Below, piece after piece: positions 19,309 through 22,606 of a stretch of 64,000 nucleotides of DNA. The stretch lies in contig NZ_JPWF01000007.1 in NCBI RefSeq assembly GCF_003326675.1, positions 62,001-126,000 of the forward strand. Reading direction: 5' to 3'. The position numbers and the translations under genes were made by a program. Each line of letters begins with the position of its first letter. Position 1 is the first letter of the stretch. The notes beneath the pieces are model-generated. The model had not been told where the DNA came from. It did not search any database and saw nothing but the letters and a program-made list of their open reading frames with translations. This DNA is from Thalassospira profundimaris (GTDB taxonomy: Bacteria > Pseudomonadota > Alphaproteobacteria > Rhodospirillales > Thalassospiraceae).

Positions 19309-20949
19309 ATGTTGCGATTGGTCTCTTTTGACCCGTACCGGATTGGTTACCCTCCCTTGAAACACAGCGCCCGCCGGTGGCGCCGTATCGGGGCAATGCT
19401 TGGTCTATGCCTTTTGCAGGCAGCATGCAGCACGTCACAGGTCTCGGTCATTACCGCACCAGATGACCCGCAGACACGCGATCTTGTCTCCCAGACGATT
19501 GAACTTGTTGCCACGCGCTATATTGATCCGATCAGCCGTGACCAGATTCTGGTCAATACCCTTGATGGGCTTTCGGAACTTGATGAAAATATCCGGGTGG
19601 GCATCACGCCGGATAGTCTGGTCTTGCAATATGACGGGCGTACAATTCAGACAATCGCCCTGCCCCCAACCAGCTATGAGCAATCCGGCCCCGAAAATGG
19701 TCAGCTTTGGTCGGACATAACCTTACAGGGCCTTGGAACCTACCGGGCTTATTCCCCGGTGCTGCGCGCCAGCAAGACCCTTGATGTGCAGGCAGCACTG
19801 GTCAGTGGCGCAATTCGCAACCTTGATCGTTACAGCCGCTACGAAGGCCCAGCACAAGCCGAAACCGCACGCAACCGTCGTGATGGCTATATCGGCATTG
19901 GCGTCCGTCTGATCGGCGGTGATGGCTATCCTGTGGTCAAACTGGTCCATCCCGATAGTCCCGCAGCCAAGGCAGGCCTGCATCCCGGTGATCAGGTAAT
20001 TTCGGTCAATGGTGCTAATATGTATGGTAAGAACAGCACCCATACCGCCGAACTTCTTCACGGCGAAGAAGGCAGCAGTGTCCGCATCGAGGTCAACGCC
20101 GCCGATAGCGATGTTATCATTCCGATGGAAATCATGCGTGAACGTGTGATTGACCGGACAGTGTTCGCTGAAATTCGTGACAATATCCTGATTGCCAAAC
20201 TGACCAGCTTCAACAGCGCCACGGCCAGTACGCTTAGTGATAACATCCTGAAAGCGCAGCTTTACAAAGGCGGCCTTCGCGGTGTGATCCTTGATTTGCG
20301 CGGCAACCGGGGTGGCTTGCTTCAACAGGGTGTGGCGGTTGCCGATCTGTTTTTACCGAACGGTTCCATCGGCAATACATTTTCACGGGTAACAGCGGCG
20401 CGGCATGTTTTCCGTGCCGAGACCGGGGATATGACCGATGGTGCACCGCTGATCATTTTGATTGATGGACGCACAGCATCCTCGGCCGAACTGGTGGCAG
20501 CGGCCCTGCAGGACCGCAATCGTGCGGTTCTGGTTGGTTCAACCAGTTTTGGCAAGGGATCGGTCCAGGCCATCAATGATTTGCCCAATCACGGTACATT
20601 GACTTTTACCTGGTCGCGCATGACCGCCCCGTCTGGTTATACATTTGACAGAATCGGCCTGTTTCCTGCGATTTGCACGCAGTCCAATGACGATGACAGT
20701 GCGGCTCACAAGGTTTCCAACGCCCTTTCCAAGCGCGAACAAACAGCTTCAACGATGGCCAAGTGGCGCAATCTTGACTACCTCGATGAGAAAAGCCGTC
20801 GGGAACTGCGAGATGTCTGTCCGGCGCATAGCAACAGCGACGCATTTGACGTCGAAGTAGCATTGGAATTGCTGAAAAACAGCCCTGATTACAAGAATCT
20901 CGCCTTTGTGGGACAACAGGAAATCGCCGATACTTTTGATGCGCACTAA
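19309..20949 (+). CDS. S41-family C-terminal processing protease, lipoprotein
   Basis: A periplasmic tail-specific protease of 546 aa. The N-terminus has a basic stretch, a hydrophobic core and a lipobox (LLQAAC, Cys40), so it is probably a lipoprotein. A PDZ domain (~185-275: GIGVRLIGGDGYPVVKLV, GLHPGDQVISVNG) precedes the S41 catalytic domain. The Ser/Lys dyad fits Ser391 in GRTASSAEL and Lys416 in SFGKGSVQ, 25 residues apart as in Prc and CtpA. Targets are unknown. It follows the DUF983 gene by 59 bp. Confidence 0.9.
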   Translation: MLRLVSFDPYRIGYPPLKHSARRWRRIGAMLGLCLLQAACSTSQVSVITAPDDPQTRDLVSQTIELVATRYIDPISRDQILVNTLDGLSELDENIRVGITPDSLVLQYDGRTIQTIALPPTSYEQSGPENGQLWSDITLQGLGTYRAYSPVLRASKTLDVQAALVSGAIRNLDRYSRYEGPAQAETARNRRDGYIGIGVRLIGGDGYPVVKLVHPDSPAAKAGLHPGDQVISVNGANMYGKNSTHTAELLHGEEGSSVRIEVNAADSDVIIPMEIMRERVIDRTVFAEIRDNILIAKLTSFNSATASTLSDNILKAQLYKGGLRGVILDLRGNRGGLLQQGVAVADLFLPNGSIGNTFSRVTAARHVFRAETGDMTDGAPLIILIDGRTASSAELVAAALQDRNRAVLVGSTSFGKGSVQAINDLPNHGTLTFTWSRMTAPSGYTFDRIGLFPAICTQSNDDDSAAHKVSNALSKREQTASTMAKWRNLDYLDEKSRRELRDVCPAHSNSDAFDVEVALELLKNSPDYKNLAFVGQQEIADTFDAH

Positions 20950-21774: not shown

Positions 21775-21806
21775 AAAAAAAATGGCCGCACTAAAAAGTA
21801 CGGCCA
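21775..21806 (-). terminator. Rho-independent terminator of the CRP-linked transcript
   Basis: Minus strand: TGGCCGTAC, loop TTTTTA, GTGCGGCCA (nine pairs, one wobble), followed by eight T's (21782-21775). It lies 120 bp beyond the CRP-like gene, far further than usual, and directly ends the proposed small RNA. Confidence 0.88.
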
Positions 21807-21854
21807 GTAAACTCTCTTGGGGGAGATGTGCCAGGCCATCGAAGTGCCCGTCAC
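21775..21854 (-). ncRNA. Candidate CRP-activated small RNA (~80 nt)
   Basis: Predicted from signals only. A -10 CATACT (21866-21861) puts +1 at the G at 21854, exactly 41.5 bp from the centre of a perfect CRP site. The transcript would end at the terminator at 21775. The stretch has no ORF and contains an unpaired C-rich segment (CAUCUCCCCCAAGAG) before the terminator stem, able to pair with Shine-Dalgarno-like GGGGGAG sequences, as many base-pairing small RNAs do. It could alternatively be just the 3' UTR of the regulator gene. Confidence 0.5.
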
Positions 21855-21860
21855 AAGGCG

Positions 21861-21903
21861 AGTATGCCCCGCGTGCCCGTCTGGTTCTGTGACAGCCATC
21901 ACA
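21861..21903 (-). promoter_or_regulatory. Class II CRP-dependent promoter with perfect CRP site
   Basis: TGTGATGGCTGTCACA (21903-21888) is a perfect TGTGA-N6-TCACA palindrome, 22 bp past the stop codon of the CRP-like gene. A CATACT -10 (21866-21861) gives the -41.5 spacing typical of class II CRP activation. Confidence 0.65.
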
Positions 21904-21925: not shown

Positions 21926-22606
21926 TTACTGGATTGCCTTACCTAGAAATTCTTCAAGTCGGTGAACATCTGGAACATACAAACCACTATCCACCTTGAT
22001 CACGAGGTCATTGCGGCTCAGAATCCCCATGACACGCGCAACCGTCTCGCGCGAGGTACTTACGCGGCTTGCGACCTCGGAATGGACTGGCACAGGCGAC
22101 AATGTGGCTGCTCCCTCGTCATCGCAGACCTCAAGCGCACGACGCAAAATTTCTGCAATCACACGCTCGTTCGCACCAAGTGTACTGACATCGACAATAC
22201 GGCGCGTCGAGGCACGAACAATCCTTGCCAGCTCGCCAATAACGTTCCAGGCAACCGAGGGATGGCTTTTAACGACCTTCTCAAAGTTCGCCGGGCTCAA
22301 AATACCGACGTCGGTGTCTTCTACGGCAACAACGCCAGCAGACCGTGGTTCACCGTCAATGGCCGACAGCTGCCCGACACAACCGCCTGCACTAAATTCC
22401 TCAAGCGTGATTTCCCGACCGGAAAGAGAATAATTCACAATACGAACCCGTCCCGACAGGATCAGATAAACATCCGAACTGTCAGATTCTGGTTCAATTA
22501 TTTGCGCACCAGCCGCAAATGTCTTGCGATTGATATGACGTTCAACGTCCCCAAGAGCGTCTTCGTCAAGGTCAGCAAAGATGCCGACAACTGATAATCT
22601 GGTCAT
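21926..22606 (-). CDS. CRP/FNR-family transcription regulator (CRP-like)
   Basis: A 226-residue protein with an N-terminal cyclic-nucleotide-binding fold (~1-120) and a C-terminal winged helix. In the effector pocket, EPRSAGV keeps the Arg-Ser pair that binds cAMP in E. coli CRP, while the Glu72 place reads Gln (VGQLS). The recognition helix TSRETVARVM has Arg, Glu and Arg in the same places as E. coli CRP (SRETVGR), so it should read TGTGA half-sites. No Fe-S cysteine cluster of the FNR kind is seen. A perfect CRP site lies 22 bp past its stop. Confidence 0.9.
   Translation of the reverse strand: MTRLSVVGIFADLDEDALGDVERHINRKTFAAGAQIIEPESDSSDVYLILSGRVRIVNYSLSGREITLEEFSAGGCVGQLSAIDGEPRSAGVVAVEDTDVGILSPANFEKVVKSHPSVAWNVIGELARIVRASTRRIVDVSTLGANERVIAEILRRALEVCDDEGAATLSPVPVHSEVASRVSTSRETVARVMGILSRNDLVIKVDSGLYVPDVHRLEEFLGKAIQ

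What the first reader, a model, noticed from the sequence alone, without database searches (positions are those of the whole stretch)
21775..21903. CRP-activated small RNA downstream of a CRP-like regulator gene
On the minus strand, 22 bp past the stop of the CRP-like gene, lies a perfect TGTGA-N6-TCACA palindrome. A CATACT -10 element puts +1 at 21854, exactly 41.5 bp from the site centre (class II CRP geometry). About 80 nt later comes a 9-bp terminator stem plus eight T's. No ORF lies between. The RNA has an exposed C-rich stretch able to pair with Shine-Dalgarno sequences. The adjacent protein carries the Arg-Glu-Arg recognition-helix pattern that reads TGTGA. Together this looks like a regulator and the small RNA it activates, encoded in tandem. 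The alternative is that this is only a long 3' UTR.
Basis: partly seen in the sequence, partly recalled or inferred. Interest (0 to 1): 0.75.

Follow-up and report, generated by a model that had tools for sequence, protein, structure and literature searches.

The report
CRP-activated small RNA beside its regulator
Next to the gene for a CRP-type regulator, marine Thalassospira bacteria keep a short RNA gene whose switch that regulator should bind; in some related families the same kind of switch instead drives a tiny membrane protein, so one spot seems to have served both roles.

Summary
All 29 Thalassospira-type genomes keep crp-like gene, TGTGA-N6-TCACA, RNA, terminator, DUF423 gene. Site and RNA are conserved; flanks are not. 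The RNA has an invariant ATCTCCCCCAAGAGA box whose C stretch is predicted open in 23 of 24 distinct sequences. Outside the genus, 31 of 62 hand-picked crp-like loci have the site behind the regulator gene (reversed control 0 of 62); 31 of 34 sites have a -10-like hexamer at the class II distance. Of those 31 loci, 18 carry a C-rich box before a terminator, 12 a ~32-codon membrane micro-ORF, one both, two neither. Most likely: a CRP-activated sRNA acting through its C stretch. Promoter and RNA are well supported; transcription, binding and targets are not shown, and two narrow target scans found nothing shared. It is not a member of alpha-r8/MmgR: below the Rfam cut-off, core absent, true copy elsewhere.

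The parts
21926..22606 (-). CRP-like regulator gene, 226 aa, cNMP-binding domain and Crp-type HTH with SRETVARV recognition helix
   Evidence: of the nine HTH-bearing cNMP-domain proteins read in full in this genome, the only one with R-E-x-x-x-R and no FNR-type E-x-x-S-R (L053 has both patterns, REVVSR)
21888..21903 (-). CRP site TGTGATGGCTGTCACA, 22 nt after the crp-like stop
   Evidence: exact TGTGA-N6-TCACA in 29 of 29 genus genomes; mean pairwise identity 0.88
21861..21866 (-). -10-like hexamer CATACT, 21 nt after the site
   Evidence: at this offset 31 of 34 outside sites have A2 and T6; 27 of 29 genus sites begin TA
21775..21854 (-). predicted small RNA, 80 nt, from the inferred +1 at 21854 to the end of the T tract
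   Evidence: fold of 21776-21854: -32.6 kcal/mol, z -4.66
21828..21854 (-). 5' hairpin of the RNA
   Evidence: predicted fold only
21813..21826 (-). C-rich box, hairpin UCUC-CCCCAA-GAGA, proposed pairing segment
   Evidence: ATCTCCCCCAAGAGA exact in 29 of 29; hairpin in the MFE of 16 of 24 distinct sequences, C stretch open in 23 of 24
21783..21806 (-). terminator stem-loop
   Evidence: 10 pairs; 3 have changes on both sides in some genus members, two of these also one broken cell each
21775..21782 (-). T tract, eight T

Best explanation
The interval is a small RNA gene. The neighbouring CRP-like protein, when it holds a cyclic nucleotide, most likely binds the site 41.5 bp upstream of +1 and activates RNA polymerase as at a class II CRP promoter, where the CRP site stands in place of a -35 element. 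The 80-nt RNA ends at its own terminator, which should also end the crp-like mRNA. It presents an open stretch of C residues (in a small hairpin in most species) and most likely pairs with G-rich Shine-Dalgarno regions of mRNAs to lower their translation. Shown by sequence conservation: site, spacing, box, terminator, linkage to the regulator. Inferred: activation by this very protein, ligand, transcription, pairing and targets.
For: Same order of genes in 29 of 29 genus genomes. Islands of conservation: site 0.88, RNA 5' part 0.72, box 0.97, linker 0.86, terminator 0.85, T tract 0.93; 3' UTR before the site, spacer, -10 window, discriminator and the stretch down to DUF423 0.35-0.46. Site behind the regulator gene in 31 of 62 loci outside the genus, 0 of 62 reversed, letter shuffles mean 0.57, at most 5. 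A2 and T6 at offset 21 in 31 of 34 outside sites, at most 5 of 34 at any other offset from 8 to 33. Boxes such as CTCTTTCCCTCAAGAG before a terminator in 18 of these 31 loci, L137 with two tandem copies each behind its own site. Genes after the RNA differ: DUF423, divK-like, LipB-like, convergent ones. The focal helix fits CRP best among nine read; ten class III cyclase matches could supply a ligand. CgrA of Rhodospirillum centenum, a CRP homologue, binds TGTGA-N6-TCACA (PMC4681086, passages).
Against: Two target scans by exact 8-9 nt match found nothing shared across the genus. The -10 is weak (CATACT), its letters are not conserved in the genus (0.46, 0 of 8 invariant), and in the genus A2 plus T6 at offset 21 is met in only 5 of 29, less often than at offsets 8, 16, 22, 25, 27 and 29. 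In 31 of 62 outside loci no site was found; the 62 were picked by hand, so these are not rates. The box hairpin is the MFE in 16 of 24 genus RNAs and in 3 of 5 outside RNAs folded (L133, L162, L163; not L090, L125). The box differs between Thalassospira (CTCCCCCAAGAG) and the others (TTCCCTCAAGAG): their common origin is inferred from place and order. The best R1 hit outside the genus (36.9 bits, L085) is not at a crp-like locus.
Confidence: 0.76

Rival explanations
1. The stretch is only the 3' UTR and terminator of the crp-like gene; the palindrome is chance or a roadblock.
For: It lies right behind the gene in every genus genome, and its terminator should also end the crp-like mRNA.
Against: A 3' UTR needs no CRP site with a -10-like hexamer at the class II distance in 31 of 34 outside sites; the letters between stop codon and site are unconserved (0.45).
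Confidence: 0.06
2. It is a leader or attenuator of the downstream DUF423 gene.
For: DUF423 follows in 29 of 29 genus genomes and was matched in 6 of 62 outside loci (a seventh, L161, looks alike by eye).
Against: The RNA with terminator stands before other genes, or convergent ones, elsewhere; the stretch from T tract to DUF423 start is unconserved (0.43, 1 of 77 invariant). A search for an antiterminator fold was not made.
Confidence: 0.05
3. A CRP-activated RNA that does not pair with mRNAs but titrates a protein or another RNA (sponge).
For: No shared mRNA partner was found; an invariant box could be a protein site. In Caulobacter an RNA sponge answers C-rich sRNAs (PMC12559287, passages).
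Against: An open C-rich stretch is the usual form of anti-Shine-Dalgarno pairing RNAs; the scans tested only exact 8-9 nt matches.
Confidence: 0.15
4. The RNA is a leftover of a micro-protein mRNA and has no function of its own.
For: A like promoter stands before a ~32-codon ORF in eight families outside the genus (f30 with an imperfect site).
Against: 15 of 17 box columns are invariant over the genus, and loci with box and no such ORF occur in six families.
Confidence: 0.06

Closest known systems
CyaR of enterobacteria (CRP activation as cited in PMC8672173, passage; other details recalled)
   Same: activated by CRP; short, terminator-ended; C-rich segment that pairs with Shine-Dalgarno regions (recalled)
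   Different: not next to the crp gene (recalled); not among the five Rfam matches
VcdRP of Vibrio cholerae (dual-function RNA; PMC8672173, passages)
   Same: CRP site in the promoter; 29-aa protein in front of a 3' pairing region with four conserved C and a terminator; the f11 locus L110 has this order
   Different: repressed, not activated, by CRP; 306 nt; VcdP binds citrate synthase; lies between vc2278 and vc2279
alpha-r8 family: MmgR, SisA-D (Rfam RF00519 suhB; PMC12559287, passages)
   Same: alphaproteobacterial; anti-Shine-Dalgarno C-rich stretch; outside the order such RNAs show an AAACT link and a GGCC-type terminator like ours
   Different: core UUUCCUCCCU absent here; 27.8 bits against a cut-off of 41; a member over the cut-off lies elsewhere in the same genome
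AzuCR and SgrST (dual-function RNAs; named in PMC8672173, passages)
   Same: small protein and regulatory RNA in one transcript; the sgrT ORF is kept in only some species
   Different: AzuCR is repressed by CRP, SgrST is activated by SgrR; no sequence comparison was made
CgrA of Rhodospirillum centenum (PMC4681086, passages)
   Same: CRP homologue that binds TGTGA-N6-TCACA
   Different: cGMP-bound, linked to gcyB-gcyC; main text has 0 hits for sRNA, noncoding, non-coding, small protein and 'small RNA' once, in a reference

Membership tests
class II CRP-dependent promoter | CRP site centred at -41.5 | tested here: met
   offset 21 from site to -10 in 31 of 34 outside sites, TA there in 27 of 29 genus sites; +1 itself is inferred
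class II CRP-dependent promoter | cyclic-nucleotide-bound CRP binds and activates | not testable with these tools
   only the helix pattern and cyclase genes
trans-acting small RNA | own promoter and intrinsic terminator, no conserved ORF | tested here: met
   by sequence only:
trans-acting small RNA | conserved unpaired seed | tested here: met
   by sequence and predicted fold:
trans-acting small RNA | conserved mRNA target | tested here: inconclusive
   nothing shared with exact 8-9 nt patterns; looser pairing not tested
alpha-r8 / MmgR / suhB (RF00519) | score over Rfam cut-off (41 bits) | tested here: not met
   27.8 bits
alpha-r8 / MmgR / suhB (RF00519) | 10-mer core UUUCCUCCCU | tested here: not met
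   absent in the RNA; core from PMC12559287; member over cut-off at G000:C46:236917-236991, 50.8 bits
dual-function RNA (VcdRP, SgrST type) | small ORF plus pairing region in one transcript | tested here: not met
   no conserved ORF in Thalassospira; by sequence L110 of family f11 has both
DUF423 leader | linked to DUF423 wherever the RNA occurs | tested here: not met

The most novel reading that the evidence does not exclude
The regulator and this locus are an inherited two-gene unit across an order: a CRP-type protein switches on, right behind its own gene, one ancestral dual-function transcript made of a ~32-aa membrane micro-protein and a 3' C-rich pairing segment. Lineages have since kept the protein (loci in f4, f9, f10, f15, f22, f28, f30), the RNA (Thalassospira f1, f5, f14, f19, f23 and two f11 loci), both (L110 in f11) or neither, so the locus records a coding RNA turning into a pure sRNA several times.
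Probability: 0.42. Interest if true: 0.76.

Novelty: new variant of a known kind. Interest (0 to 1): 0.63.

Why it matters
CRP-controlled sRNAs are well known from enterobacteria and vibrios; here is a candidate in Alphaproteobacteria that travels with its own regulator gene and whose promoter geometry can be read in loci of 12 families. If the shared promoter does drive a micro-protein in some families and an RNA in others, it gives a natural series for asking how coding and non-coding roles of one transcript are exchanged. It also gives this CRP-like protein a predicted, easily tested target.

Tried and rejected
Rfam: five matches at E <= 5 over the locus, all below cut-off, sharing a C-rich segment and terminator. 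Second copies in the own genome: R1 gave one further hit, 22.6 bits, at the end of a gene. The 20 stretches were 17 R1 hits outside the genus and 3 second hits in genus genomes: L090 and L094 proved to be the same locus; L091, L095, L096, L098 look like alpha-r8 (three of them over the cut-off; L095 not scanned); the other 14 were read but not pursued. Class-wide search with R2: 92 of 385 genomes matched at E <= 0.001 (only five of the genomes named in its table belong to the order, three of them matching). Of the 30 loci read, L185, L186 (genus) and L187 (order) have TGTGA-N6-TCACA upstream; L187's hexamer at offset 21 does not fit. Of 27 loci outside the order, three (L195, L196, L209) were cut by contig ends so that my script read the wrong place; 16 of the other 24 show TTTCCTCCC, the alpha-r8 core.

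Another perfect site, L165, lies before a murJ-like gene (by eye) with no RNA-like sequence seen. Targets: TTGGGGGAG-N2-10-ATG matched in 27 of 29 genus genomes; genes were not identified, and no matched string recurred in more than four genomes. TGGGGGAG-N3-10-ATG in four genomes gave 30 matches; 18 open at least 25 codons and were compared, with no cross-genome pair at E <= 1e-4. Micro-proteins: no Pfam or NCBIfam hit at E <= 1 for the five of 13 searched; best match in the own genome E 0.21 inside a long frame. Literature: searches listed nothing that by title or abstract describes this RNA; the library is open-licence only.

The micro-ORF was first found with a K-A motif pattern, which also hit L127 and L140 (no site; dropped); L121 and L134 were added by eye. 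A scan without the motif found 12 of the 13 (not L134, no Shine-Dalgarno match) and also unrelated frames in L105, L142, L162. Codon-position changes (1, 2, 3) favour coding only mildly: 120/121 4, 3, 10; 120/115 12, 9, 22; 116/136 9, 4, 11; 136/126 6, 5, 11; but 116/126 11, 6, 9; and changed codons are mostly non-synonymous in 116/136 (12 of 17) and 116/126 (14 of 19). The case for coding rests on length, start, Shine-Dalgarno and motif. The label 'both' for L105 rests on an unrelated 45-codon frame.

Full report
What is there. On the minus strand the crp-like gene (21926-22606) is followed after 22 nt by TGTGATGGCTGTCACA (21903-21888), then CATACT (21866-21861), and an 80-nt stretch from 21854 to the end of a terminator with eight T at 21775. 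The centre of the site is 41.5 bp from 21854. The site is the only perfect one in the window; the whole genome has 12, against 2 for the reversed pattern. The stretch 21776-21854 folds at -32.6 kcal/mol, z -4.66.

Where the window lies.

Conservation in the genus. A search of 60 genomes (own, 28 others of the genus, 31 of the order) found the interval in all 29 of the genus (others E 2.2e-10 or better); the best order-level match had E 0.039. In all 29 the order is crp-like gene, site, RNA, terminator, DUF423; site TGTGA-N6-TCACA and box ATCTCCCCCAAGAGA are exact in 29 of 29. In G022 (L020) the regulator aligns only to residue 122. Mean pairwise identity by segment: 3' UTR before the site 0.45, site 0.88, spacer 0.35, -10 window 0.46, discriminator 0.37, RNA 5' part 0.72, box 0.97, linker 0.86, terminator 0.85, T tract 0.93, stretch to DUF423 0.43. 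Three terminator pairs show changes on both sides. The C stretch is unpaired in the MFE of 23 of 24 distinct RNAs, mean unpaired probability 0.93; the box hairpin itself is the MFE in 16 of 24, the other eight having other pairings.

The same promoter outside the genus. The crp-like protein has matches at E <= 1e-22 in 233 of 297 order genomes. I fetched 60 loci chosen by hand from the high-scoring list, one per genome and spread over families, and used two more found through R1: 62 in all. Whether each is an orthologue was not tested beyond the match. In 60 of 62 the helix reads RETVAR, in L132 RETVSR, in L153 none was found. Within 330 nt of the stop, 31 of 62 have the site (at most one mismatch, or GTGA-N6-TCAC exact); reversed sequences 0 of 62; letter shuffles mean 0.57, at most 5. 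Measured from the end of each of 34 sites in these loci, the hexamer at offset 21 has A2 and T6 in 31; at other offsets from 8 to 33 at most 5. In the genus, T and A stand at the first two places of that offset in 28 of 29 each, both in 27 (the exceptions are the window, CATACT, and L030, TTATGT), and the mean match to TATAAT is highest there (3.21); but A2 with T6 is met in 5 of 29 only, less than at offsets 8, 16, 22, 25, 27 and 29. The spacing is that of a class II CRP promoter (established knowledge of E. coli CRP). CgrA of R. centenum binds the same palindrome (PMC4681086, passages).

What the promoter drives. In 18 of the 31 loci a box of the kind CTCTTTCCCTCAAGAG, CTTCCCTCAAGAG or CTCCTCCAGAG lies before a terminator (aligned in A2); L137 has two such units in tandem. 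Of five outside RNAs folded, three form the box hairpin (L133, L162, L163) and two do not (L090, L125). In 12 of the 31 the site is followed by an ORF of 29-33 codons, beginning M-x-x-(x)-K-A-F-like (L134: K-T-F, no Shine-Dalgarno match) and mostly hydrophobic; a thirteenth, L108, has a site with two mismatches. L110 has both box and micro-ORF; L122 and L151 neither. Families: box in f1, f5, f11, f14, f19, f23; ORF in f4, f9, f10, f11, f15, f22, f28, f30. On a quick tree of 70 regulators (62 plus 8 genus members) hand-given labels need 17 changes against a shuffled mean of 32.8; the tree cannot tell gain from loss. Membrane location is inferred from the hydrophobic sequences only.

Neighbours. 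The RNA is followed by DUF423 in Thalassospira and, by protein match, in six of the 62 outside loci, but by a divK-like gene in L110, L113, L125, by a LipB-like gene in L130 and by convergent genes in L106, L142 and L149 (names by eye from translations). A DUF423 leader is therefore unlikely.

How it most likely works. CRP-like protein with cyclic nucleotide binds at -41.5 and activates; the RNA ends at the terminator that should also serve the regulator's mRNA; its C stretch pairs with G-rich translation starts. Promoter and RNA rest on conservation, the rest is inference. The genome has ten class III cyclase matches. Of its 15 cNMP-domain matches, nine proteins with an HTH were read in full: the focal helix (RETVAR) is the one that fits E. 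coli CRP best, L053 (REVVSR) fits in part; one match lacks an HTH and five long proteins were seen only at their ends. Two exact-match target scans gave nothing shared, which speaks against long, strongly conserved pairing.

Comparison. CyaR is CRP-activated (cited in PMC8672173). VcdRP joins a CRP site, a 29-aa protein and a pairing region with four C, but CRP represses it (same passages). The alpha-r8 RNAs have UUUCCUCCCU (PMC12559287, passages); the focal RNA scores 27.8 bits against 41 and lacks the core, while all 25 genus genomes searched have a member over the cut-off elsewhere. Outside the order the broad model mostly found alpha-r8-like RNAs without the site (16 of 24 read), so a distant common origin of the 3' ends stays open. 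The best R1 hit outside the genus, L085 (36.9 bits), is not at a crp-like locus and has an FNR-like palindrome upstream instead.

Limits. Counts outside the genus are of hand-picked loci. That the Thalassospira box and the TTCCCTCAAGAG box have one origin is inferred from place and order. No expression data were available. Papers: PMC6413936 (outline, section 14, string search), PMC4681086, PMC8672173 (passages), PMC12559287 (outline, passages); all others only as search listings.

Noticed in passing
L137 (G154:C77): Two tandem copies of the RNA, each with its own CRP site, and before them a third site followed by a terminator without the box.
   Followed up: partly
L085 (G111:C136:8471-8562): Best R1 hit outside the genus (36.9 bits) with an FNR-like palindrome TTGAT-N4-ATCAA starting 35 nt upstream of the hit: perhaps a like RNA under an FNR-type regulator.
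   Followed up: no
G000:C46:236917-236991: An alpha-r8 (MmgR/SisA-type) RNA over the Rfam cut-off in the same genome; all 25 genus genomes searched have one.
   Followed up: partly
L188 (G474, outside the order): A CTTCCCTCAAGAG box with terminator but no CRP site found upstream.
   Followed up: no
L020 (G022:C46): The crp-like protein aligns only to residue 122 though site and RNA are intact; may be a sequencing or assembly fault.
   Followed up: no
L165 (G000:C1:87276-87291): A perfect TGTGA-N6-TCACA in a long gap before a murJ-like gene, a possible second target of the regulator.
   Followed up: partly
L107, L108, L110, L115, L116, L120, L121, L126, L129, L134, L136, L143, L154: An unnamed family of 29-33-aa hydrophobic proteins behind crp-like genes; no Pfam or NCBIfam match for the five searched.
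   Followed up: partly
window 19309-20949: S41 peptidase with PDZ domain, convergent to the DUF423 gene; an S41-like frame, by eye, also lies near the locus in L090 and L094.
   Followed up: no
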